Assembly: GCF_009363535.1 (NCBI RefSeq)
Contig: NZ_CP045369.1
Location: 818,501 to 882,500 of the forward strand
Origin: Microbulbifer sp. THAF38
GTDB lineage: Bacteria > Pseudomonadota > Gammaproteobacteria > Pseudomonadales > Cellvibrionaceae
Length of the DNA stretch: 64,000 nt
Direction of reading: 5' to 3'
Shown here piece by piece: positions 19,302 to 31,867 of the stretch (the stretch's first letter is position 1; each line of letters starts with the position of its first letter). A program made the translations under genes and the position numbers. The notes below the pieces were generated by a model. It was not told the origin of the DNA. It did no database searches and was given only the letters and a program-made list of their open reading frames with translations.

Positions 19302-21620
19302 TCACTTTTTAGTGATAAAGATTTTACCCACCGACTTGTCACGGCTTTGGGCAATTACGCGAACCTTCAGACCGTAAGGCGTAATCGCGCGGCCAGCATC
19401 GGGGATCTCATCGCTGCTGAAGCTTCTACGATCGCTGAAGACACGGTGCGGACGGTTGTGAATATCGGTCATGGTAATGCCGTACTCTTCCAAAAGATCC
19501 AGGTTCAGCTGCTGAGCCCAGTCGACACCAAAAGTGGCATCGTGGATCTGGTAGCGGGTGGAGGCTACGGAATCATCGCTCCACTTCAGCACCTGTTGGT
19601 CTGCATCCACTACGCCGAGGAAACCGTCACCGGGGTGAATACCAACCCAGTTGTTGTCTTGGCTGGTGTCGGCATACCAAACCAGCAGGCCTTCGTTGTA
19701 GGTCAGCATTTGGCCGGCCACATTGATGTGTGCCAGACCTTGGTCTACACCGCGATGGGTGCGCCATTCCAGCAGGTAGTAGTGGTCGTGCAGATCGTAG
19801 CCGGGGTGGCGGCTGAAGCCGGTCAGGCTGAAGTCGCCATCGCTCTCCGCATCGTCGAAGAGGGTGGCTTGGCCGTCGACATTGATCGTGATGTCATCGG
19901 CGAACAGGCCAGGGTTGGCTTCATAGGCATCGGTGATATAAGCGATGGACAGGTTGAACTGTTGGCCGGCGTAGGCGCTCAGGTCAAACTCGGCATCGAC
20001 CCAACCACCGGAGCTGCCGGTAATACCGAAGCCTGGGTTTTGGCCGTTGGGGCTGGTATCGGTAGTGATATTACCGGGGATAGAAACGAAGCCTTCTCCC
20101 AGGTCAACCATGACCGCACCGTAGTCCCAATCTTGCTCAATGTCGTACCACACTTTGAAAGTCAGGCTGGCACTCTGAGCATCGGTCAGATCGACTGGGA
20201 TTACCATGGAGTTCTGCAGGTTGTTGTCACTGCCACTGAAGTAAGCGTACTCACCGCTGCTGGGCACGGTGACGACCACTTCCTTTTGGGGGAGGTCGAT
20301 ACGGACCGCATCGTTATTGGTGCCCTTGTGTACAGCCTCATCCAACAGGAGCCGGATGCCGCGGCGAGGGATATCTTCCAGGGCGATGGTCTCGCCGTGC
20401 AGCCAGTTACCATCGTGGTTGGTCTGCAGATATTCCTTCGCCCAAGCAGAGAAGCCAGTGGGCTCGGAGCCGGGAATAATACCGGCCCAGCTGCCGCTGG
20501 ACATCACCGACCAGGAGGAGATGGGTTCACCGCGGCCGGAGCCATCGGTATCGTATTCATCGGGCAGGCCCAGGTCATGGCCGTATTCGTGGCTGACAAC
20601 ACCGGCTGCCGCATCGGCAGGCTGTACGGTGTAGTCGTAAGCCGCCATGGTGCCGCCCCAATAATCTACCTCTGCGGCGGTGCCCTCAATGGAGAAAACA
20701 TCGCCGAGGTTCCAGCGGTGTGCCCAGATGGCATCTTCACCCAGCTGGCCGCCACCGGCCTCTTCACCCACGGAGGAGTGGAAGATCATGATGTGGTCAA
20801 CCAGGCCATCGGCCTCCCAGAAGTTGCCATCGCCATCCAGGTCATAGCGGTCTTCGATATCGAAGTCGGCCAGGTTAATGCTGGGGTCTGCCGCGGCGGC
20901 TTGCAAGGCTTCGCGCACCAGAGCGCGGGCATCACCATCTTCGTTATTGCCGTAGAAAGCCGCCGGCTGGCTGGCGGTGTACCAGCCTGCAACAGAACCT
21001 TCTACCGAGTAGCTGTAGCCGGACTGCTGCCAGTAGAACTGCTGCATGGAAAGCAGGTTTTCACCCTGCGGACCAGTGAAGCCCTGCTGGGAAAACAGCA
21101 GGTCAGCATAGTGCTGCGCGGCGTAGTCTTCGTAGTACATATCCGTTTCCCCAGGCTCGATGCTGTTATGGGGGAAATCGGGGAAGTCCATCAGGATGGC
21201 GAGAACTTTTGCAGTGCGTACTTCGCCTTCGTAGTTTTCAAGTTGAAGCGGGGCTGGTGCGCGGCCATGGCCATGAAAACGCCCCTTGCCTTTGCCCCTT
21301 CCTAATCTGGGATGCTTGCCGCCACGGGCGTGCTTCATCATTTGTACCGTTTCACTGGACAAATCCTGAGCAAGACTTTGGTCTTGTTTGGCACGCTCTT
21401 TCAGGAACTGGTGCAGAGTGCGCTCGGCTTCGCCGATAGATGCATTTTTACTAATGCGGCCTGAACGCTTGAGCATGTCGATTAGCTTGGCTTCGTTAGC
21501 GATCACCAAGTCGATCTGATTACCACCTTGCATTTGAGGTGAGGGGGCAGCAGAGCTGTTCGCAGCCATCAGGCTGAGAGCAAGCGCGCTGACTGGCAGC
21601 AGACTATTAACTTTTAGCAT
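19302..21620 (-). CDS. Secreted M6 family metalloprotease (immune inhibitor A type)
   Basis: Extracellular zinc protease of 772 residues. The signal peptide is at about 1-24 (ends SSAA). A prosegment rich in His, Gly and Lys follows (100-120), then the catalytic domain with HEYGHDLGLPDEYD (His344, Glu345, His348; HExxH plus a downstream Asp/Glu), the signature of M6 peptidases. An EF-like DLDGDGN stretch (261-267) probably binds calcium. The C-terminal half is beta-rich with a MAM/Ig-like accessory region. Likely role: degradation of environmental protein for nutrition, which fits the peptide transporter and TBDRs later in the window; immune inhibitor A itself acts on host proteins, but nothing here shows a host. 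Monocistronic, with an unusual 5' leader. Confidence 0.93.
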   Translation of the reverse strand: MLKVNSLLPVSALALSLMAANSSAAPSPQMQGGNQIDLVIANEAKLIDMLKRSGRISKNASIGEAERTLHQFLKERAKQDQSLAQDLSSETVQMMKHARGGKHPRLGRGKGKGRFHGHGRAPAPLQLENYEGEVRTAKVLAILMDFPDFPHNSIEPGETDMYYEDYAAQHYADLLFSQQGFTGPQGENLLSMQQFYWQQSGYSYSVEGSVAGWYTASQPAAFYGNNEDGDARALVREALQAAAADPSINLADFDIEDRYDLDGDGNFWEADGLVDHIMIFHSSVGEEAGGGQLGEDAIWAHRWNLGDVFSIEGTAAEVDYWGGTMAAYDYTVQPADAAAGVVSHEYGHDLGLPDEYDTDGSGRGEPISSWSVMSSGSWAGIIPGSEPTGFSAWAKEYLQTNHDGNWLHGETIALEDIPRRGIRLLLDEAVHKGTNNDAVRIDLPQKEVVVTVPSSGEYAYFSGSDNNLQNSMVIPVDLTDAQSASLTFKVWYDIEQDWDYGAVMVDLGEGFVSIPGNITTDTSPNGQNPGFGITGSSGGWVDAEFDLSAYAGQQFNLSIAYITDAYEANPGLFADDITINVDGQATLFDDAESDGDFSLTGFSRHPGYDLHDHYYLLEWRTHRGVDQGLAHINVAGQMLTYNEGLLVWYADTSQDNNWVGIHPGDGFLGVVDADQQVLKWSDDSVASTRYQIHDATFGVDWAQQLNLDLLEEYGITMTDIHNRPHRVFSDRRSFSSDEIPDAGRAITPYGLKVRVIAQSRDKSVGKIFITKK

Positions 21621-21929: not shown

Positions 21930-23255
21930 CTAAGGCTGTTCCTTCCAGGGCAACCAAAGAGAGATTTGTAGCCCCCCTCCGCTGCGGTTCATTAATTGAA
22001 TTCGGCCTCCATGAGCGTCGACAATTTCTCTACAAAGAGCGAGCCCCAGGCCCACCCCTTGTTCTTTGGTGGAGAAAAATGGTAGCAATGCCTGCTGCAA
22101 AATTTTTTCACTCATGCCACAACCACGGTCGGCAATAATCAGCTGTTGACCCAGGCCATCGGTTCGAATTGATAGTTCGATATCTTCGCTATTGGAACCC
22201 GCTTCGCGAGAATTTTTGATTAAATTGAGTAACGCTTGCTCAATCTGCACCGGATCAAAGTATCCAGGACGCTCAGGCAGTTCACCTTTTAAAATAAATT
22301 CCTGTAAGGGGGCGATACGCTCAATAAGCTCTTGCCAACTCACTTGCGCACAGCTGGGAGGCGGTAACTTGGCAAAGCTGGCGTAACCCTGGGTGAACTC
22401 AGTGAGATGCTTGCAGCGTTCCGCAATAATATCGAAAACCTTTTCAAGCGCAGTGGCTTTATCTGGTTTGGCAATCAGCATCTTGCCTGAGTGGGCCAGT
22501 GAGGAGATGGGGGCCAGGGAATTATTTAATTCATGGCTAATCAGGCGAATTACTTTTTTCCATACTTCCACCTCAGCCCGGGTGAGCTCTTTCGTCATCT
22601 CGCGTAAAACAATCAGGCGATGCTTGTGCGCATTGAGGACAAAAGTGCTGTTGCCGATGTGCATGGAATGGGTGCCATGACTGTCGGTAAAGTTAAACAG
22701 GCCGTTCTCCCATTTCTCAATAGCGTTGGCTATCTCTCTAGGGCTGTTTGGCAAAAGCTGTTGCAGCAGTAAACCCTGTATAGGCCTACCCCTATTGAGT
22801 AGTTTTTTAGCACTGCTATTGGAATAAATAATATGATCACTCTGATCCACCAGGATCAAAGCCTGGGGCGAGCTTTGTATCACAGTGTCTAGTAGCAGTT
22901 CCCGTTGGTAAATATGGGCACGCTCGCGTCTTAGGTGCTCTCCAATTTCGTTATACAGGTTTGTAATTTGACTCAGCGCTGTATCCCTTGGGGGCACCAG
23001 TGAAATAGAAAAGTCACCGTCGCGGAAGTTGAGCAATCCACCCTGCAAGGACTTTAGAGTGGTGGTTAGGGGCCTCAAGACCCAGCGTATTAAAGTAATA
23101 TTGACGAAAATACCCAGGATAAGGCCCAGAGCCCAGGATGGCATGGCATTGAGGCCCAAATTGACTAGCAGCCACGACAACGTAGTGCCAATCAACAGTG
23201 CTACAGTAGTGCTGGCGAGAATACGCCCCTCGAGAGAGAAATTTTTGGACATCAA
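21930..23255 (-). CDS. Sensor histidine kinase, NtrY-like
   Basis: Inner-membrane sensor kinase of 441 residues. Two membrane segments (about 13-31 and 40-60) are separated by a very short periplasmic stretch, so it probably senses signals in the membrane or cytoplasm. A HAMP-like region, a PAS-like domain (about 120-220), the phospho-acceptor box SHELNNSLAP (His241) and a C-terminal ATPase with GVGLGLALCREIVDAHGG follow. Its start overlaps the stop of the response regulator gene by four bases (ATGA), so the two are co-translated. It should control phosphorylation of that sigma-54 activator and thus, by context, the exporter genes upstream. Confidence 0.92.
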   Translation of the reverse strand: MMSKNFSLEGRILASTTVALLIGTTLSWLLVNLGLNAMPSWALGLILGIFVNITLIRWVLRPLTTTLKSLQGGLLNFRDGDFSISLVPPRDTALSQITNLYNEIGEHLRRERAHIYQRELLLDTVIQSSPQALILVDQSDHIIYSNSSAKKLLNRGRPIQGLLLQQLLPNSPREIANAIEKWENGLFNFTDSHGTHSMHIGNSTFVLNAHKHRLIVLREMTKELTRAEVEVWKKVIRLISHELNNSLAPISSLAHSGKMLIAKPDKATALEKVFDIIAERCKHLTEFTQGYASFAKLPPPSCAQVSWQELIERIAPLQEFILKGELPERPGYFDPVQIEQALLNLIKNSREAGSNSEDIELSIRTDGLGQQLIIADRGCGMSEKILQQALLPFFSTKEQGVGLGLALCREIVDAHGGRIQLMNRSGGGLQISLWLPWKEQP

Positions 23256-24604
23256 TAGGGGATACCGTGTTTTTCCAAGCGGCGATATAGGGCCTGCCGG
23301 CTCATACCGAGTTCTCGCGCAGCTTGAGCGATAATGCCATTACAGCTGGTTAGAGTCTGTTGCAACAGCTCACGGCTGGGCTCGAAATTGATCTCAGTCT
23401 TTTCTACCTGATGCTGTTGTGGCAAAGCCAATAGAGACTCATCGATGGTATCTCCCCTGCAAAGTACGGATGCGCGTTGCATGATATTTTGTAGCTCGCG
23501 CACATTGCCGGGCCAGCGATAACGAGTGAGCGCAGTCACCGCCTGGGGAGAGAGCTTTTTAGAGGGATCGTTTTCCTGTAAAAAATTGATGGCCAGAGGC
23601 GCTATATCTTCAGGGCGCTCACAGAGGGGCGGTAGGCGCAACTCAATCACATTTAGGCGGTAGAACAAATCCTGGCGAAAACGGCCTTCTGCAATGGCCT
23701 GGGGAAGATCGCTATTGGTCGCGCTGATCACCCGGACCTTGACCTTGCGGGTCTGGCTGCTGCCGAGGCGCTGGAACTCGCCGGTTTGTAGTACGCGTAA
23801 TAGTTTTACCTGTCCACTGGCAGAGAGCTCGCCGATCTCGTCGAGAAAGAGGGTACCGCCATCGGCAGCCTCGAAGCGTCCTTCGCGGGCTTTATTGCCC
23901 GAGCCGGTATAGGCGCCTGGCTCGGCGCCAAACAGCTCTGCTTCCATTAGGTCTTCTGGTAGGGCACCCACATTGACCTTGATAAAAGGGCCTTCGCCCA
24001 GTAAGGAGTTTGCTTGCACAACTTCCGCTATTTTTTCCTTGCCGGCCCCATTTGGCCCGGTGATCAGCACGGGTACATCAGATTTGGCCACCTGGGTAGC
24101 CATCTCCAGAAGTTGTTGCATCTTATCACTGCGGTAGATGATCTCGCGCAAGTCGAACTTACCCTGTAATTCGCTGCGGGCATTGATGGCCTTTTGCTGG
24201 GAAGTTCGCTGTTGCTTTTGCAGTTCACCGAGCTCCAGCAGATTATTGATGGTGGAGATCAGTTTATTATCATCCCAGGGTTTGCCCAGGTAATCGGCGG
24301 CACCAGCGCGGACCAGTTCTACGGCCATCTCCAATTGCGTCCAGGCGGTCAAGAGGATGATAGGTAGATCCGGGTTGATTTCACGAATGGCAAAAAATAG
24401 TTCGCGCCCCTCCTCACCAGAGGTGGTGTCCGCGGTGAAATTCATATCCTGGATCACCAGGCTAATATCCCGATTCTCACGCAACAGCTGCAAGCCTGCC
24501 TGGGGGGTAATGGCGCAGAGCGGCTGCAAGTCATGTAATGACAACAGTATTTCCAGGGCCGAGACGATACCGCTGTTATCGTCAATAATAAGTATTTTAT
24601 CCAT
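23252..24604 (-). CDS. Sigma-54-dependent response regulator, NtrC family
   Basis: Transcriptional activator of 450 residues. The receiver domain has phospho-acceptor Asp53 in IQDMNF. The AAA+ domain has Walker A GPNGAGKE (183-190) and Walker B LFLDEIGE (252-259). The sigma-54 contact loop reads GAYTGS (230-235) instead of the canonical GAFTGA. The C-terminal Fis-type helix-turn-helix is AARELGMSRQALYRRLEKHG. Cotranscribed with its kinase at the end of the exporter operon. The consensus sigma-54 promoter at 30071-30086 is its obvious target. Confidence 0.94.
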   Translation of the reverse strand: MDKILIIDDNSGIVSALEILLSLHDLQPLCAITPQAGLQLLRENRDISLVIQDMNFTADTTSGEEGRELFFAIREINPDLPIILLTAWTQLEMAVELVRAGAADYLGKPWDDNKLISTINNLLELGELQKQQRTSQQKAINARSELQGKFDLREIIYRSDKMQQLLEMATQVAKSDVPVLITGPNGAGKEKIAEVVQANSLLGEGPFIKVNVGALPEDLMEAELFGAEPGAYTGSGNKAREGRFEAADGGTLFLDEIGELSASGQVKLLRVLQTGEFQRLGSSQTRKVKVRVISATNSDLPQAIAEGRFRQDLFYRLNVIELRLPPLCERPEDIAPLAINFLQENDPSKKLSPQAVTALTRYRWPGNVRELQNIMQRASVLCRGDTIDESLLALPQQHQVEKTEINFEPSRELLQQTLTSCNGIIAQAARELGMSRQALYRRLEKHGIPY

Positions 24605-24613
24605 AGGACCTAG

Positions 24614-24633
24614 GGCCAGCTTATAAGCTGGCC
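24614..24633. promoter_or_regulatory. 20-base perfect palindrome upstream of the response regulator gene
   Basis: GGCCAGCTTATAAGCTGGCC is a perfect palindrome ending ten bases before the regulator's start codon. As RNA it would form a 7-bp hairpin close to the ribosome binding site; as DNA it could be an operator. No T tract follows on either strand, so it is not a terminator. Confidence 0.5.
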
Positions 24634-24718
24634 ATTATGCAATGAGTGAGTGGTTAGGGGGAACTGCTGCCGCTGGTGTTTAAATCCAGATCGTAGGTTA
24701 GAAGGTTAGTGTCAGAGG

Positions 24719-25252
24719 CTAGTGACCACTGCTGGCAGGTTGGTGATCAAAACTCAAGACTCTGGCGAGCTTCCACTGCCCATCTACTTTTTTCCAGAGG
24801 TGGGTGAACTGTCCACTCTCGCGTAATACTTCACTGTTATCAGCATTTATGCCATAAAATTTATGTGTACCGCTTTGAATGGCCCCGTAGTTGTTCATTG
24901 GGAAAATTTTAACACTATCGCTAATGAGTTCTCGGCGCGCTTTAATATCACTGCCAGATTTTTGTCGTTCACATAATTTGCTAATGTCATCGAGAAATTC
25001 ACGTGCTGAGCTTGCGGTCTTACCCCACTTATCATGGTACATTTCAAAATCATCAGTGACGAGTTGACTCAGTTTATTAATGTCGCAGCTATTGAAGACA
25101 GCATCAAACAGTTGTGAGTCCATAATGGTGATTTCTTTTTCTAATTCCACTGTAGCTTGAGGGCCGGCAACGACGTGATGTTGCTCAGCGATTGCTGTGG
25201 GTAAGAAAATTGATATGGCTGTAAACCCGAGAGCCATTAAGTAATTTCGCAC
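24719..25252 (-). CDS. Secreted NTF2-like (DUF4440/SnoaL-type) protein
   Basis: Predicted periplasmic or secreted protein of 177 residues. A signal peptide (ending TAIA) precedes a domain of the NTF2-like fold, recognisable from LFDAVFNSCDINKLSQLVTD near its start and WKKVDGQWKLARVLSFDH at its end. Such domains bind small ligands or act as hydrolases and isomerases; no catalytic assignment is possible. I choose the GTG at 25252 because AAGGGAGA lies about eight bases before it and the signal peptide starts there; an in-frame start at 25294 has neither. It lies within the exporter operon, so it may handle the exported compound or the signal. Confidence 0.75.
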   Translation of the reverse strand: MRNYLMALGFTAISIFLPTAIAEQHHVVAGPQATVELEKEITIMDSQLFDAVFNSCDINKLSQLVTDDFEMYHDKWGKTASSAREFLDDISKLCERQKSGSDIKARRELISDSVKIFPMNNYGAIQSGTHKFYGINADNSEVLRESGQFTHLWKKVDGQWKLARVLSFDHQPASSGH

Positions 25253-25291
25253 AATAAATTCTCCCTTTTTATTTGCTATCTTGCTTTTCAC

Positions 25292-25331
25292 CAAACTGGT
25301 GGTCAGCTAAAAAAGCCCGGCCACCAGTTTG
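25292..25331 (-). repeat. Intercistronic stem-loop in the exporter operon
   Basis: CAAACTGGTGG (25292-25302 read on the plus strand) pairs perfectly with CCACCAGTTTG (25321-25331) across an 18-base loop. It lies between the second permease gene and the NTF2-like gene. There is a T run within the loop on the minus strand but none after the stem. It may stabilise the upstream transcript or reduce read-through to the regulatory genes. Confidence 0.5.
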
Positions 25332-25340
25332 AATTTAATT

Positions 25341-26549
25341 TTATACGCTGCGGGTGGCGATAGCCGGGGAGATATTGGCTGCACGTAGTGCTGGCGCCAG
25401 TGCAGCGGCGAGGCTGACAACCAATACCAATAGAGCACAGATAGCGAGCGGCAGTAGGGTTAATACCGGCTGGGAGTAATCGCGCACCATATACTGATTA
25501 ACGATTAGGGCTGCGGCACTGCCCAGGGCAATACCGGTAGCGGCAATCAGACTGTTTTCAATCAGGAAATAACGGCTGATATTGCTGCGGCTAGCTCCCA
25601 GTGCACGTCTAACACCTATTTGTTTGGCGCGTTGGTTAATCCAGAAGATTGTCAGGCCGACAATCCCCAGTGCTACGATAAAACTGAGCGTGGCCGCAAC
25701 AATAGATAATACTTTTATCATTAAGTTATCCCCTGCATAACTGCGAGCGACATACTCTGAGAGCACTCTGGTTTTAATGACTCTTTGAGGGTCCCTTTCA
25801 GAGAGTTTTTCTACCAAGGTCTTTAACACTTCATCGCGCTTTCCCGGCTCGGCACGTACTAAATAATTGACGTCCTGAGTATTTCTGACAATAGGGAAAA
25901 AGGCCACATTGCCTGCTTTTGACCAGTCCACCCAAGCGCCCAGATGCCGTTCGACAACACCAATAATTTCTATTGGATGGGACGTGTTGCCATCATAGAG
26001 GGGTTTCCCAACAGGATCTTGGTCTGGGTAAATTTTATCCGCGAATTGCTGGGTGATAACTGCGACATTGATATCTCGAATTTCACTCGGGTCAAAATAT
26101 TGCATTTCAGCACTGGTAAAGTTTCGCCCCGCCACTAATTTTAAACCCAGGGTATTGATAAAGTTTGGGTCCGTATTGTAACGGTTAGAGACCTCTCCAC
26201 CGACTTCCTGATTAGGCTGAGTGTAAAAAGTGCCCGCGGAACCAGACCGGGATAACGGTATCTGGTTGGTAATGGTTGCATCTTTGACAAAAGGCAGTTT
26301 TCTCAGTAACTCCAAATCAGAAGATACGGCTCCAATCATGTCGTAGTTATTGGGGATCGCCATTACGTTGATGGCAATGATCTCCTCTACGGCAATACCG
26401 GTGGGCCTTTCTAATTTTGCAATGCGGTCTTTTACGATAACAGCCGTGTTGCTGATAATTGCCAGTGTCAATGCAAGCTGCAGAGCGATCAGCAGGGCAG
26501 GCACTTTGTTACGCCAGAGGGCGGATAACATGGGTTTTAATTCAAGCAT
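25341..26549 (-). CDS. ABC transporter permease, MacB/FtsX type (second)
   Basis: Inner-membrane permease subunit of 402 residues. Topology is that of MacB-like proteins: one N-terminal membrane helix (about 16-38), a large periplasmic domain, then three C-terminal helices. The family motif RRALGASRSNI follows the second helix. It probably forms a heterodimer with the permease encoded nine bases upstream, powered by the shared ATPase. MacB-type systems work as mechanotransmitters that drive export of peptides, lipids or antibiotics from the periplasm; the substrate here is unknown. Confidence 0.9.
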   Translation of the reverse strand: MLELKPMLSALWRNKVPALLIALQLALTLAIISNTAVIVKDRIAKLERPTGIAVEEIIAINVMAIPNNYDMIGAVSSDLELLRKLPFVKDATITNQIPLSRSGSAGTFYTQPNQEVGGEVSNRYNTDPNFINTLGLKLVAGRNFTSAEMQYFDPSEIRDINVAVITQQFADKIYPDQDPVGKPLYDGNTSHPIEIIGVVERHLGAWVDWSKAGNVAFFPIVRNTQDVNYLVRAEPGKRDEVLKTLVEKLSERDPQRVIKTRVLSEYVARSYAGDNLMIKVLSIVAATLSFIVALGIVGLTIFWINQRAKQIGVRRALGASRSNISRYFLIENSLIAATGIALGSAAALIVNQYMVRDYSQPVLTLLPLAICALLVLVVSLAAALAPALRAANISPAIATRSV

Positions 26550-26558
26550 GACTCGTCC

Positions 26559-27875
26559 TTACTGGGTTTTCAGATAAATGGAGGGGTTAGTGCGACTGAT
26601 ACGCCAAGCCGGGTAAAGCCCTGCCAATAGGCTTGCGATTAGCGCGAGTCCGATGGCTGCGATCACCATCATCCAATCCATCCTGGCGACCGTATCCAGT
26701 TGTCCCATCGCTAAATAACGAATTCCACTGATCCCCATGAAAGCGAGCAAAATACCGACTATTCCACCGAGAATACCGATGGTTGAACTTTCAATGAGGT
26801 GCTGGGTGAAGATGGCATTGCGGCTGGCACCAAGTGCTCGACGCACACCCGCTTCGGGCGCTTTGCGTAGAAACTTGGCGAGCAAGAGAGCTACCGCGTT
26901 GATGACGCAAACTAATAGGAAGGCCAGGGATACCCAGCCCAATACGCGATTGTCATCGCTGAGAACCTCGTTCAGAACCAGCCACTCGGAAGGTTTACTC
27001 AGAGCAAACTTCGATGGTCGCTCGAAGCGCCCCTGCTCCTTTTGTCCTTGAATATACGCGGTTAGGAAGCTTTCGTACTCGGCTTTTTGTTCGCTATCAC
27101 TGAGTTCAACCCAAAATTGAATCCAGACGCTCTCACTTTGTAGGAAACCCTCGTAGCCTTCGCCCTCTCCACCACTATCCCAGCCATTGGTATTTCCCCA
27201 GCTGTAAATTTCCAGCTTGCGGTGGAGGCCAAAAGGCACGAACAGGGATTCAACTTCTGCAAAGGAGCTATTATTGACATCGTAAACTTTGGGTGAGGGC
27301 TCCCAGGTATCAATAACGCCTATAACGGTAAAAGGCTGGCTATTTAATACGACGGTTTTACCAACGCTGTTTTCTCCAGAGAATATTTTTTCATTGGTGG
27401 CTTTGGATAGCACCACCACCTGCATAGGTGAATTGTCCGCACTCTTTTCCCAGGTGCCGCCGTAAATAAAAGGAACATCGAATAACCTGAAGAAATCGCG
27501 GGTGGTTACACGGATGTCAGCGGTATAAGGTCGGATTGCGGAATCTTCCAGTTCTACGGTGAAACCATAGCGGTGCATGGCTACCTGGCGGGTGGGGATA
27601 TCGGAGCGCAGCAGGGCCTGGGCATCTTTATAGGTCAGCTGCCAGGGGACTTCGTTAGCGTTATCGTAGGCTTTATTCACATCCCAGCTATCGAGCTGTA
27701 CTGCGAAAAGCACGTCATCCTTATGTTCAAGCGCGTTCTGCGACATCATGTAGTTGAGAGTGAGTACTGTCATAGACGCGCCCACACCCACCGCGATAGC
27801 CGCGACCATCAGTGCGCTTAATATCGGTGTACTGCGCAGGCTGCGCAACGCCAGGGAAATATAGTATCCAATCAT
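26559..27875 (-). CDS. ABC transporter permease, MacB/FtsX type (first)
   Basis: Inner-membrane permease of 438 residues with an N-terminal helix, a MacB-like periplasmic core and three C-terminal helices. The FtsX-type motif RRALGASRNAI is present. It shares domain order, but only moderate sequence similarity, with the next gene, so the pair arose by old duplication and now likely forms a heterodimer. It lies 11 bases after the ATPase gene and 9 bases before its partner, in one operon. Confidence 0.9.
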   Translation of the reverse strand: MIGYYISLALRSLRSTPILSALMVAAIAVGVGASMTVLTLNYMMSQNALEHKDDVLFAVQLDSWDVNKAYDNANEVPWQLTYKDAQALLRSDIPTRQVAMHRYGFTVELEDSAIRPYTADIRVTTRDFFRLFDVPFIYGGTWEKSADNSPMQVVVLSKATNEKIFSGENSVGKTVVLNSQPFTVIGVIDTWEPSPKVYDVNNSSFAEVESLFVPFGLHRKLEIYSWGNTNGWDSGGEGEGYEGFLQSESVWIQFWVELSDSEQKAEYESFLTAYIQGQKEQGRFERPSKFALSKPSEWLVLNEVLSDDNRVLGWVSLAFLLVCVINAVALLLAKFLRKAPEAGVRRALGASRNAIFTQHLIESSTIGILGGIVGILLAFMGISGIRYLAMGQLDTVARMDWMMVIAAIGLALIASLLAGLYPAWRISRTNPSIYLKTQ

Positions 27876-27886
27876 TATGCCGGCCC

Positions 27887-28588
27887 TTATGCTGTGATGG
27901 CTTCAGTTTGGTCGGTGACTGGGCGTAGATCGCACACCTGTCCATCCACAATCTGAATATTGCGATGTGCGCGGCGGGCCAATTCGGGATCGTGGGTGAC
28001 CATTACGATAGTGGTGCCCCACTCATTGATAAACTCCAGAAGCTCCATAACCTGGCGCGCCATCAGGGAGTCGAGATTTCCGGTGGGTTCGTCTGCGAGC
28101 AGAAAGCGTGGCTCACCGGCCAGTGCTCGGGCGATGGCGATACGCTGCTGCTGGCCGCCGGAAAGTTGCGCAGGCAGATGTTTGGCCCGGGCAGACAGGC
28201 CCACCTGCTCCAGGACCTTTTCGATGCGTTTACAGCGCTCTTTAGCGTTAAAGCCGCGGTAGCGCAGAGGAACATCAATGTTATCGAACAGGTTGAGATC
28301 GGGAATCAGGTTGAACCCCTGAAAAATAAAGCCGATTTTTTCATTGCGCAGTCGGGAGCGCTGGCGGTCACTCAGGTTGCTGACATCTTCACCATCCAGT
28401 AAATATTGGCCTCCGGTTGGGGTTTCCAGTAGCCCTGCGATATTGAGAAAGGTGGTTTTACCGGAGCCGCTGGGGCCGGTGACAGAGACAAATTCCCCTT
28501 CCTTTACTTCCAGGCTGAAGTCGCGCAGGGCGTGGGTTTCAATGGTGTCTGTGCGGAAACTCTTGCGGACGTTATGCATTTTAAGCAT
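27887..28588 (-). CDS. ABC transporter ATP-binding protein, MacB/LolD type
   Basis: Cytoplasmic ATPase of 233 residues. Walker A GPSGSGKT (38-45), signature LSGGQQQR, Walker B FLLADEP and the following D-loop NLDS are all intact. The length and GxxxTPTGG-like insertion place it in the MacB/LolD export branch. It energises the two permeases encoded directly downstream and should couple to the HlyD-like adaptor encoded upstream. Confidence 0.95.
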   Translation of the reverse strand: MLKMHNVRKSFRTDTIETHALRDFSLEVKEGEFVSVTGPSGSGKTTFLNIAGLLETPTGGQYLLDGEDVSNLSDRQRSRLRNEKIGFIFQGFNLIPDLNLFDNIDVPLRYRGFNAKERCKRIEKVLEQVGLSARAKHLPAQLSGGQQQRIAIARALAGEPRFLLADEPTGNLDSLMARQVMELLEFINEWGTTIVMVTHDPELARRAHRNIQIVDGQVCDLRPVTDQTEAITA

Positions 28589-28683
28589 GGCGATGTTCCT
28601 TGTTTTTCACTGAATTTTTAAATCGTTGTTCATTGCGGAAGCAGAAAAGTCGTAGCTTGCGCGTGTTTACTGTCTGGTTTGGT

Positions 28684-29976
28684 TTACTCTTTCAGGGCGA
28701 CCAGCTGGGCCCTCTCCAATTCTTCGGAAGCGGAGATAATGATTTGATCCCCCTCTTGCAGGCCGGAAACGATTTCCACTTGTTTCAACCCCAATGCGCC
28801 AATTTGAATACCAACGCGTTCCGCCTGCTGTTGATCGTTAAGGCGAAACGCATAGCGACCGCCGCTCTGATCCAGGAAACCGCCGCGTTTCACCAGCAGC
28901 ACATCATTGCGGTTCTCCAACAGCACACGGGCGGTGAGACGCAGGTTCTGACGCAGGTTCTGGGGCTGTCCCTCGCTAAAGCGCACACGGGCGATGACTT
29001 GGTTATCGATAACCTCGGGGGAAATCGCGGTAATTTCGCCGGGCAGTTCACGCCCTCCCAGATTGATGGCCACGGCCATATTCAGGCCCAGGTCGTCGGC
29101 GTAGTTTTCCGGCACGGCGGCTTCTAATTCGAAACTGGTGAGGTCCACGACGGTGATCAGTGGCGCATTGGCGGGCACTGCACTGCGCTGGGTGACGGCG
29201 AGGCTGCCGACAGTGCCGTTCACTGGAGAGAGAATCTGCAGTTCGCGCACACGGCGCTCCAGCTCCTCCACTTGTAGTTGTTGTTGTGACAACTGCAGCT
29301 CCAGAGTCTGGGTTTCAAAGGTGAGGGATTCTTTCTCCAGCTCTGCGTTTTGTACGGCCTGTTGGTATTCCAGCTGGGCGCGGGCCATTTCGTCCTTACT
29401 GCGCTCAAAGTCGAGCAGGGAGATAATCTGTTTCTCCATTGAGAGTTCGGAGCGCTTCAACTCCCGTTTAGCCGCGGTGAGATCGACCTTGGCCAGGTCG
29501 GCTTTCTGCTGGTTCTCCATCTGTTGGCGCTTGGCCTGAATCTTCTGCCGTTGCAGCTGCACACCGAGCTGGTTTAGTTGCGCCTTTTCCTGGGCCAGCT
29601 GGTTGGAAAGCTCGGGGCTGTCGACGGCGGCGAGGATTTGGCCGGCCTTTACGCTATCCCCGGCTTTCACTGAAAACTTCACGATACCCTGGGCGGGGCT
29701 GAACAGGGTGGGACTGTTGGCGGCGACGACCTTGCCCTGGACCACCAGGTCGCGTACCAAATCACCGCGTTCCACTTGGGCGATATTGATGCGTGACAGA
29801 GATAGGGTGTTATCCACAGAGCTGGTGCTGTGCCAGGCGCTGATACCCCAGATGAGGAAAGCGGTGGCCAGGCCGAGGCCGAGGGTGCTCTTAATTACTT
29901 TTGGATTCTTCCACAGCGGCACGGCTTCGACTTTTGTATCTTGCCTGGAAGTGTCTCTGATCATCTCGCTTTCCAT
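28684..29976 (-). CDS. HlyD/MacA-type periplasmic adaptor of the ABC exporter
   Basis: Periplasmic adaptor of 430 residues, first gene of the unit. One N-terminal membrane helix (about 29-46), a barrel-sandwich half (SPAQGIVKFSVKAGDSVKAG), a long coiled coil rich in Gln/Glu/Lys/Leu (about 125-245), the second sandwich half (ILSPVNGTVGSL) and a beta-barrel follow in order. It joins the inner-membrane ABC complex to an outer-membrane channel, none of which is encoded here. Start ATG 29976 or ATG 29964; both have only weak ribosome binding sites. A consensus sigma-54 promoter lies about 95 bases upstream. Confidence 0.92.
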   Translation of the reverse strand: MESEMIRDTSRQDTKVEAVPLWKNPKVIKSTLGLGLATAFLIWGISAWHSTSSVDNTLSLSRINIAQVERGDLVRDLVVQGKVVAANSPTLFSPAQGIVKFSVKAGDSVKAGQILAAVDSPELSNQLAQEKAQLNQLGVQLQRQKIQAKRQQMENQQKADLAKVDLTAAKRELKRSELSMEKQIISLLDFERSKDEMARAQLEYQQAVQNAELEKESLTFETQTLELQLSQQQLQVEELERRVRELQILSPVNGTVGSLAVTQRSAVPANAPLITVVDLTSFELEAAVPENYADDLGLNMAVAINLGGRELPGEITAISPEVIDNQVIARVRFSEGQPQNLRQNLRLTARVLLENRNDVLLVKRGGFLDQSGGRYAFRLNDQQQAERVGIQIGALGLKQVEIVSGLQEGDQIIISASEELERAQLVALKE

Positions 29977-30070
29977 TTCTCTTTATCGGGGCTTTTGCTT
30001 TTCCAAATTGGATGCAAAACATTTTCTATTCGGATGCAAACCCAAAAATATTGGTTTTGCCGAGTATTTA

Positions 30071-30086
30071 GCAAGGGCTGTGCCAA
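30071..30086 (-). promoter_or_regulatory. Sigma-54 promoter of the exporter operon
   Basis: On the minus strand the sequence is TTGGCACAGCCCTTGC: -24 element TGGCAC, five-base spacer, -12 element TTGC, a complete match to the RpoN consensus. A transcript would begin near 30060, giving a leader of about 85 bases before the HlyD-like adaptor gene. A sigma-54 activator is encoded at the far end of the same unit. Confidence 0.85.
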
Positions 30087-30160
30087 CTTTAAAAATGCTT
30101 GTAACTCACTGATAAATAAGGATTATTTTATTTTCTGGGAGTGCGGGGCTTTTCCGCGGG

Positions 30161-30196
30161 TGTCCGCAAAAAGTGTCCGCTGTCCGCTTTGTCCGC
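30161..30196 (-). promoter_or_regulatory. Heptamer array in enhancer position
   Basis: Four direct copies of TGTCCGC (plus strand, at 30161, 30174, 30181 and 30190; GCGGACA in the direction of the operon) lie 75-110 bases upstream of the sigma-54 promoter. That is where NtrC-type activators bind. The steps are 13, 7 and 9 bases. Binding by the regulator encoded at 23252-24604 is inferred. Confidence 0.55.
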
Positions 30197-30361: not shown

Positions 30362-31867
30362 ATGTTCCTTCCATCGCTGCTCTCATCGACCAAAGCCGAC
30401 TGGTTCGGCAATATACGTCGCGACGTTCTCGCAGGCCTGGTAGTGGCCCTGGCCCTGATTCCAGAGGCGATCGCCTTTTCTATTATTGCGGGGGTGGACC
30501 CCAGGGTTGGACTCTACGCCTCCTTCTGTATTGCCGTGGTGATCGCCTTTGTGGGCGGTCGGCCGGGCATGATTTCCGCGGCCACGGGTGCCATGGCACT
30601 GCTGATGGTGACGCTGGTGAAGGAGCACGGCTTGCAGTATCTGCTGGCGGCGACGCTGCTCACCGGGGTGCTGCAGATTATTGCCGGTTACCTCAAGCTG
30701 GGCAGCCTGATGAGCTTTGTGTCCCGGGCGGTGGTGACCGGGTTTGTGAACGCCCTGGCCATTCTGATATTTATGGCGCAGATGCCCGAGTTGATCGGTG
30801 GCACCTGGGAGGTCTACGCCATGACCGCAGCGGGCCTGGGGATTATCTATCTCTTCCCCTATATTCCGGTGATTGGTAAAGCGGTGCCCTCGCCGCTGGT
30901 GTGTATCCTACTGCTTACCGCAGTGGCCGTGACCATGGGGTTGGATATTCGTACCGTCGGCGATATGGGCGAACTGCCGGATACTCTGCCGATCTTCCTC
31001 TGGCCCGAAGTGCCGCTGAATTTTGAAACCCTGCAAATTATCTTCCCTTATTCCGCTGGCCTGGCCGTGGTCGGTCTGCTGGAATCTCTGATGACGGCAA
31101 CCATTGTCGACGACCTGACCGATACCAACAGCGATAAGAACCGTGAGTGTAAAGGGCAGGGGATTGCCAATATTGCTGCCGGCTCTCTCGGTGGTATGGC
31201 CGGTTGCGCCATGATTGGCCAGTCGGTAATCAACGTGAAGTCCGGCGGTCGCGGTCGACTCTCGACCCTGGTGGCCGGTATTGGCCTGTTGACCCTGGTG
31301 GTATTTCTCAGTGACTGGGTGGCGGTAATCCCTATGGCAGCCCTGGTGGCGGTTATGATCATGGTCTCTATCGGCACCTTTGACTGGAGCTCCATACGCA
31401 ACCTGAAGCACTATCCGCTCTCCACCAATTTGGTCATGCTGGCCACTGTGATTGTGGTAGTGTGGACCCATAACCTGGCTTATGGTGTGTTTGTTGGGGT
31501 GTTGCTGGCCGCGCTATTTTTTGCCAACAAAGTCAGCCACTTTATGTATGTAAGCAGTAAACTGGACGAGGCACAGAGTCGTCGTACCTATAAAGTGATT
31601 GGGCAGGTTTTCTTTAATTCCGCCGATAAATTCACCGCATCATTCAACTTCAAAGAAGTCGTGGATACGGTAGTGATCGACCTCAGCCGCGCGCACTTCT
31701 GGGATATCTCCGCGGTGAACGCCCTAGACAAAGTTGTGCTGAAATTCCGTCGCGAGGGTGCCCAGGTAGAGCTGGTGGGACTTAACCAAGCCAGTGAGAC
31801 AATCGTCGACCGGTTCGGCGTACATGATAAACCCGAGGAAATTGAACGGGTTCTTGGAGGACATTGA
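30362..31867 (+). CDS. SulP family anion transporter with STAS domain
   Basis: Inner-membrane transporter of 501 residues related to SLC26/SulP sulfate or bicarbonate carriers. About 10-12 hydrophobic segments fill the first 390 residues, including the family stretch [20 protein letters not shown] and the ATGAMALL region. A cytoplasmic STAS domain follows (about 395-490, [20 protein letters not shown]). The substrate cannot be told from sequence; sulfate, bicarbonate and dicarboxylates are all known for the family. Its stop overlaps the start of the universal stress protein gene by one base, so the two are coupled. Confidence 0.92.

What the first reader, a model, noticed from the sequence alone, without database searches (positions are those of the whole stretch)
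21930..30196. Self-contained sigma-54 exporter locus with promoter, enhancer-like array, activator and kinase
The sequence shows a full-consensus RpoN promoter (TTGGCAC-N4-CCTTGC on the minus strand, 30071-30086) before a seven-gene minus-strand run: adaptor, ABC ATPase, two MacB-like permeases, secreted NTF2-like protein, sigma-54 activator, kinase. A heptamer array sits 75-110 bases upstream, where NtrC-type activators bind. The regulators come last in the unit, which implies positive autoregulation and a switch-like response. The exported compound and the signal are unknown.
Basis: partly seen in the sequence, partly recalled or inferred. Interest (0 to 1): 0.72.

Follow-up and report, generated by a model that had tools for sequence, protein, structure and literature searches.

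The report
Self-activating sigma-54 exporter operon
A marine bacterium carries a pump operon that also encodes its own sensor and activator and has a matching DNA control region in front; the same package recurs in many related bacteria and looks like a dedicated, little-studied module for sensing and exporting some compound.

Summary
In this Microbulbifer-like genome an exact sigma-54 promoter (30071-30085, minus) and four TGTCCGC repeats (30161-30196) precede adaptor, ATPase, two MacB-like permeases, a DUF4440 gene, an NtrC-type activator (EBP) and a kinase.

Of 84 distinct upstream regions from EBP-bearing operons, 81 have at least two TGTCCG/CGGACA half-sites within 100 bp (shuffles 0.9%); of 9 EBP-less exporter loci, none. 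Two cut-off loci were set aside; one (L163) has an array but no EBP on its contig. A sigma-54-like site follows in 79 of 82.

DUF4440 is accessory, so the core is six genes.

Best reading: a dedicated, self-activating sigma-54 exporter module. Substrate, signal, RpoN dependence and autoregulation are untested. Ten searches of the held papers showed no experiment on it.

The parts
30161..30196 (-). Enhancer-like array: four GCGGACA half-sites as direct repeats (TGTCCGC on the + strand)
   Evidence: co-conserved with the EBP in relatives
30102..30114 (-). IHF-like site TATCAGTGAGTTA, one mismatch to WATCAANNNNTTR, 29 bp above -24
   Evidence: consensus recalled
30071..30085 (-). Sigma-54 -24/-12 promoter TGGCACAGCCCTTGC
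28684..29976 (-). Periplasmic adaptor, MacA/HlyD-like
27887..28588 (-). ABC ATPase, separate from the permeases
26559..27875 (-). Permease 1, MacB_PCD plus FtsX
25341..26549 (-). Permease 2, MacB_PCD plus FtsX
25292..25331 (-). Hairpin after permease 2 (z -4.16)
24719..25294 (-). Accessory DUF4440 (NTF2-like) protein with hydrophobic N-terminus; the TTG start is the ORF caller's and lies in the hairpin
24634..24641 (-). TGCATAAT, possible extended -10 for the regulators; seen by eye also in L040, L096, L098
   Evidence: weak
24614..24633 (-). Hairpin GGCCAGC...GCTGGCC just before the EBP gene (z -1.25)
23252..24604 (-). EBP: receiver, AAA+ sigma-54 interaction domain (GAYTGS loop), Fis-type HTH
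21930..23255 (-). Histidine kinase: membrane helices with a very short outside loop, PAS-like region, HATPase

Best explanation
A dedicated, self-activating exporter module. Inferred sequence of events: the kinase, with membrane helices and almost no outside domain, detects membrane or exporter state, or an inside signal through its PAS-like region, and phosphorylates the EBP. The EBP binds the GCGGACA half-sites; IHF bends the DNA between array and promoter; the EBP ring contacts sigma-54 RNA polymerase at -24/-12 and opens it. Transcription makes the MacA/MacB-like exporter first and, past a hairpin, probably less EBP and kinase. Shown by computation: gene order, motifs, their joint occurrence, spacing classes, near absence of other motif copies, and the hairpin. 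Inferred: binding, phosphorylation, RpoN and IHF dependence, direction of transport, relative expression. Most likely role: expulsion of an envelope-active compound such as a peptide or lipopeptide (about 0.45 for that role taken alone).
For: 81 of 84 EBP-bearing upstream regions have the array, 0 of 9 EBP-less ones do; sigma-54-like site after the array in 79 of 82, shuffles 1.8%. IHF-like site at 17-19 or 28-31 bp above -24 in 61 of 76 regions. Motif pairs nearly confined to the operon. Six-gene order recurs in many genera. EBP keeps the phospho-acceptor D53, Walker B and arginine-finger regions and a GA[FY]TG loop in nearly all 20 aligned. rpoN and ihfA present. Kinase without an outside domain.
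Against: No expression or binding data. L163 has an array but no EBP on the 1.7 kb held after permease 2. L125 has only a degenerate array; L162 cannot be read there. L059 has a degenerate sigma-54 contact loop. Several Alteromonadales promoters lack the C of the -12 GC. The loci are related, about 32 clusters; the phasing of array to -24 is weak (R 0.38). The substrate is a guess.
Confidence: 0.8

Rival explanations
1. Constitutive regulators: EBP and kinase are made mainly from their own weak promoter behind a terminator-like hairpin, so only the exporter is switched and there is no meaningful positive autoregulation.
For: Hairpin at the permease 2/EBP boundary in 36 of 56 gaps, 4 of 39 in the adaptor/ATPase gap; TGCATAAT before the EBP in the window and three relatives (by eye).
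Against: Only 8 of the 50 hairpins found have T-rich tails; the sigma-70 scan of the region found no more sites than shuffles and none in the gap before the EBP; EBP and kinase follow the exporter genes in the same direction in the family loci and nearly all named loci that have them.
Confidence: 0.3
2. The exporter carries a self-made product (secondary metabolite or peptide), not an outside toxin; the module switches on export when the product builds up.
For: ATPase and adaptor resemble, below cut-off, the darobactin exporter models; permease pairs are multiplied in L152 (five) and L098 (two).
Against: No biosynthetic gene among the genes that recur with it, though flanks were not annotated systematically; a kinase without outside domain beside a MacB-fold exporter resembles Bce resistance modules.
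Confidence: 0.35
3. The array is bound by some other regulator, or is a chance or low-complexity repeat, unrelated to the EBP.
For: No binding data exist; L163 has an array without a visible EBP.
Against: Shuffles, joint presence and absence with the EBP, placement above an IHF-like and a sigma-54-like site, rarity elsewhere in genomes.
Confidence: 0.05

Closest known systems
NtrC/NifA-type sigma-54 promoters (UAS, IHF site, -24/-12)
   Same: Upstream sites about 75-110 bp above -24, IHF-like site between, AAA+ activator (layout as in PMC7057263, passages)
   Different: The activator seems to serve essentially one operon, its own; half-sites come in either orientation and several spacings
Bce-type resistance modules (BceRS-BceAB)
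   Same: MacB-fold ABC transporter beside a two-component system whose kinase lacks an outside sensor (PMC5985334, passages)
   Different: NtrC-type sigma-54 activator, periplasmic adaptor, and two four-helix permeases instead of one ten-helix BceB
MacA-MacB(-TolC) tripartite exporters
   Same: Adaptor and permease 1 match solved MacA and MacB chains (E 3e-14 and 5e-14)
   Different: ATPase is a separate protein and there are two different permeases; E. coli/Salmonella macAB is under PhoPQ (PMC5985334, passages)
ADOP permeases and darobactin exporter DarBCD
   Same: P1 and P2 align with the two halves of the ADOP model; DarD is the ATPase's best NCBIfam hit
   Different: All below curated cut-offs
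Predicted sigma-54 link to FtsX-like/COG1136 ABC systems (PMC12316311)
   Same: A statistical enrichment that the authors call first evidence for this link (passages; part 1 of 3 of section 19)
   Different: What I read names no cognate EBP, half-site, IHF site or operon

Membership tests
Sigma-54/EBP-controlled operon | -24/-12 element | tested here: met
   Exact in window; like site in 79 of 82 relatives with half-sites
Sigma-54/EBP-controlled operon | Activator with sigma-54 interaction domain and GAFTGA loop | tested here: met
   Domain E 2.6e-64; loop reads GAYTGS, Y variant known in few bEBPs (PMC7057263, passage); last residue deviates
Sigma-54/EBP-controlled operon | Upstream activator sites | tested here: met
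   Array 76-111 bp above -24; 81 of 84; binding itself untested
Sigma-54/EBP-controlled operon | IHF site between enhancer and promoter (common, not universal) | tested here: met
   One mismatch in window; 61 of 76 at two phased distances with up to two mismatches
Sigma-54/EBP-controlled operon | RpoN-dependent transcription | not testable with these tools
   rpoN gene present
MacAB tripartite exporter | MacA-like adaptor and MacB_PCD/FtsX permease | tested here: met
MacAB tripartite exporter | ATPase fused to the permease, one permease type | tested here: not met
   Separate ATPase and two permeases
MacAB tripartite exporter | Works with a TolC-type outer-membrane channel | not tested
   No such gene among the seven; the genome was not searched for one
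Bce-type module | MacB-fold transporter beside a two-component system, kinase without outside sensor | tested here: met
Bce-type module | Single ten-helix BceB permease, no adaptor | tested here: not met
   Four hydrophobic peaks in each of two permeases, adaptor present
Bce-type module | Kinase signals only with its transporter | not testable with these tools
   Needs a permease deletion with reporter
Darobactin exporter DarBCD | NCBIfam cut-offs (DarB 700, DarC 450, DarD 375 bits) | tested here: not met
   41.0, 85.7 and 273.2 bits

The most novel reading that the evidence does not exclude
A Gram-negative counterpart of Bce modules built on sigma-54: the MacB-fold exporter itself is the sensor for a kinase without an outside domain, and the EBP reads an enhancer whose half-sites may face either way as long as array, IHF bend and promoter stay in helical register. 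Microbulbifer has replaced the palindromic sites seen in other genera by tandem direct repeats.
Probability: 0.28. Interest if true: 0.72.

Novelty: new variant of a known kind. Interest (0 to 1): 0.52.

Why it matters
It is a compact unit (enhancer, IHF-like site, promoter, pump, activator, kinase) whose motif pairs are nearly confined to it, found in Microbulbifer, Pseudoalteromonas, Alteromonas, Glaciecola, Shewanella, Ferrimonas, some Colwellia, Lysobacterales and three records labelled Acidobacteria. It puts a concrete regulator, motif and operon behind a recent statistical link between sigma-54 and FtsX-like exporters (PMC12316311). The natural variants of half-site number, orientation and spacing make the rules of a bacterial enhancer testable.

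Tried and rejected
Array as chance repeat: rejected. DUF4440 gene as core: rejected. Wider regulon: in the own genome the direct repeat CGGACAC-N6-CGGACAC is exact only here, other matches have two mismatches and are fewer (14) than the reversed control (33); one other direct pair and one other palindromic place. In 25 other genomes there is no excess over the reversed control outside the array (14 against 25), but L173 (Dokdonella) has six sites elsewhere that I did not follow.

Exceptions and dropped rows. L052: array further up, before an NTF2-like first gene; L125: one exact half-site plus near matches; L162: unreadable there. L106 duplicates L044. L148 and L163 were set aside before the count. 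L148 is cut inside the EBP gene. L163 has an array and a sigma-54-like site but no EBP on the 1.7 kb held after permease 2; counted as EBP-less it would make 1 of 10 instead of 0 of 9. L114, counted as EBP-less, ends 168 bp after permease 2 and cannot really be judged; its one half-site did not reach two. Loci without a usable adaptor start did not enter (7 of 102: 3 of L040-L061 and 4 of L096-L175; one search lists the rest, and L106 brings the 96 to 95 distinct). The three misses of the promoter pattern among 82 (L056, L057, L133) have near sites that fail it at one position. Spacing statistics used 76 of the 84: at least two half-sites and a site 30-110 bp after the array. The 22 unnamed-genome loci L040-L061 were picked by EBP match, so they are EBP-bearing by design; the 80 named loci were picked by permease 1, the best 80 of 543. 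Array-to--24 phasing is weak (R 0.38; best period near 11). Hairpins: the mononucleotide shuffle was replaced by dinucleotide shuffles and other gaps as control.

Regulators beside EBP-less exporters: none among 20 neighbour proteins scanned from 8 of the 9 such loci plus L114 included; two of the 20 had no Pfam match; not every neighbour was scanned.

Literature: ten searches, of which listings and abstract starts were seen; none listed an experimental study of this operon. Subscription journals are mostly not held. PMC11237479, PMC3162934, PMC4641369, PMC5985334, PMC7057263: passages only. PMC12316311: passages and part 1 of 3 of section 19. Not used: structure prediction, protein-database search, Rfam.
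Full report
WHAT IS THERE. The window lies in a 4.79 Mb genome. The best named match to permease 1 is Microbulbifer okhotskensis (82%); that the window is Microbulbifer is inferred from such matches. Seven minus-strand ORFs occupy 21930-29976: MacA/HlyD-like adaptor, ABC ATPase, two MacB_PCD+FtsX permeases, a DUF4440 protein, a receiver-AAA+-Fis activator (EBP) and a histidine kinase. Upstream are an exact -24/-12 element at 30071-30085 and four TGTCCGC copies at 30161-30196. Three heptamers at such spacing occur nowhere else in the genome; direct CGGACA pairs with gaps of 1-12 occur at one other place. rpoN and ihfA are present.

THE COMPARATIVE TEST. The order adaptor-ATPase-P1-P2-EBP-kinase recurs in Microbulbifer, Pseudoalteromonas, Alteromonas, Glaciecola, Shewanella, Ferrimonas, Thalassotalea, one Colwellia, Lysobacterales and records labelled Acidobacteria. 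In the order-wide search the EBP was found at E<=1e-120 in 17 of 390 genomes, nine of them (own included) from the window's genus; 353 genomes without a match were not listed, so I cannot say that every sampled genome of the genus has it. In one search, where all 61 genomes are listed, 4 of 4 of the genus have it and 25 of 61 overall at E<=1e-90. One Microbulbifer record (L104) has an exporter without EBP beside it.

Of 96 usable upstream regions (95 distinct), two were set aside. Of the remaining 93, 81 of 84 EBP-bearing ones have at least two half-sites within 100 bp and 78 have at least three; dinucleotide shuffles give 0.9% and 0%. None of nine EBP-less loci has two. One of the nine (L114) ends 168 bp after permease 2 and cannot be judged; one of the two set aside (L163) has an array, a sigma-54-like site and no EBP on the 1.7 kb held after permease 2, so it is a possible exception. 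The three EBP-bearing exceptions: L052 has its array further up, before an NTF2-like first gene; L125 has a degenerate array; L162 is unreadable there. A TGGYAYN5YNG site follows within 220 bp in 79 of 82 (shuffles 1.8%). So array, sigma-54-like site and EBP largely occur together. The loci are not independent: they fall into 32 clusters at 66% upstream identity, a threshold close to background.

ENHANCER ANATOMY. Outside Microbulbifer the half-sites often form palindromes, TGTCCGCGGACA (31 adjacent pairs) or TGTCCGnnnCGGACA (26); direct pairs 13 bp apart (18) and other arrangements also occur (L044 and its duplicate L106 both counted). In most Microbulbifer loci the core is CGGACA-g-CGGACA-cNNNNNg-CGGACA, all one way, often with one opposite half-site further up; M. 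okhotskensis (L096) has six in a row. Between array and promoter lies an IHF-like WATCAANNNNTTR with an A-rich stretch before it. A match with at most two mismatches was found 10-40 bp above -24, same strand, in 67 of 76 regions; 36 lie at 17-19 and 25 at 28-31, none at 20-27. On cluster representatives the Rayleigh R at 10.5 bp is 0.79 for IHF to -24 (n 27), 0.48 for array to IHF (n 27) and 0.38 for array to -24 (n 32). The sites were chosen by the motif, so base preferences inside it are partly circular; the two spacing classes are not. A match anywhere in the spacer with at most one mismatch is seen in 54 of 76 and in 15% of shuffled spacers. In the window the site is 30102-30114, one mismatch. 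Many Pseudoalteromonas and Alteromonas promoters keep the -24 GG and the -12 G but not the C.

ONE TARGET. In 25 whole genomes 39 palindromic places (gap 0-3) were found; 25 lie in this operon's array, in 18 of 25 genomes, and 14 elsewhere, against 25 for the reversed control pattern. In the own genome one palindromic place (gap 0-12) lies elsewhere, control 5. The EBP therefore seems dedicated to its own operon. L173 is an exception with six places elsewhere. Direct pairs and single half-sites were not surveyed in other genomes.

AUTOREGULATION, QUALIFIED. EBP and kinase follow the exporter genes, so activation should raise them too. But perfect stems of at least 7 bp occur in 36 of 56 permease 2/EBP gaps of 40-150 nt, against 4 of 39 adaptor/ATPase gaps, 3 of 16 EBP/kinase gaps and 4.9% of dinucleotide shuffles. 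Stem sequences differ between genera while the position is kept. The window has two: after permease 2 (z -4.16) and before the EBP (z -1.25, not exceptional). Of 50 stems found in the wider set of 79 gaps, 8 have T-rich tails, so attenuation or message processing seems likelier than full termination. TGCATAAT before the EBP in the window, L040, L096 and L098 (by eye) could give basal EBP; the sigma-70 scan does not support it. Some basal supply is logically needed, since sigma-54 promoters have no activator-free activity (recalled).

SENSING AND FUNCTION. Two hydrophobic peaks were called near the kinase N-terminus in 68 of 80 relatives, with at most 20 residues between them; the window kinase has three peaks within its first 63 residues. 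No column before position 70 is identical in 75% or more of 81 sequences. This resembles BceS, which needs its transporter to sense (PMC5985334, passages). Transporter-linked or membrane sensing is my inference. Adaptor and permease 1 are MacA/MacB-like by sequence. No biosynthetic gene recurs in the compared core, but flanks were not annotated systematically. L152 (Dyella) has five permease pairs behind one adaptor and one ATPase and L098 has two, which may reflect diversification of substrates.

KNOWN OR NEW. Two-component systems beside exporters and the UAS-IHF-sigma-54 layout (PMC7057263, passages) are both known kinds. A 2025 study reports enrichment of sigma-54 promoters at FtsX-like/COG1136 ABC systems and calls it first evidence (PMC12316311; passages; part 1 of 3 of section 19). 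Ten searches of the held library listed nothing on the cognate EBP, its half-site or experiments. I rate it a new variant of a known kind.

Noticed in passing
L152:2676-19873 and L098:7851-11838: Multiplied permease pairs behind one adaptor and one ATPase: five in Dyella japonica (L152), two in Microbulbifer taiwanensis (L098).
   Followed up: no
L096, L098, L148, L175 (before the EBP) and L052 (before the adaptor): A DUF4440/NTF2-like gene recurs at two different places of the operon. The L040 gap reads, by eye, like a decayed remnant of it.
   Followed up: partly
L104: Microbulbifer sp. NKW57 has an exporter of this family without EBP, kinase or array; whether another full copy exists in that genome was not checked.
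   Followed up: partly
L163: Array and sigma-54-like site in front of an exporter with no EBP visible before the contig ends.
   Followed up: partly
L059: EBP relative with a degenerate sigma-54 contact loop (GTFPDA) and no adaptor hit beside it.
   Followed up: no
L173 (Dokdonella): Six palindromic TGTCCG-N0-3-CGGACA places outside this operon's array, one in its reversed control; possibly more targets in Lysobacterales.
   Followed up: no
window 30362-31867 +: A divergent SulP-family transporter (SulP/STAS) shares the upstream region; it also lies there in 8 of the 10 named Microbulbifer loci (L096-L105).
   Followed up: no
window 19302-21620 -: An M6 (immune inhibitor A type) peptidase gene follows the kinase after about 310 bp on the same strand.
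   Followed up: no
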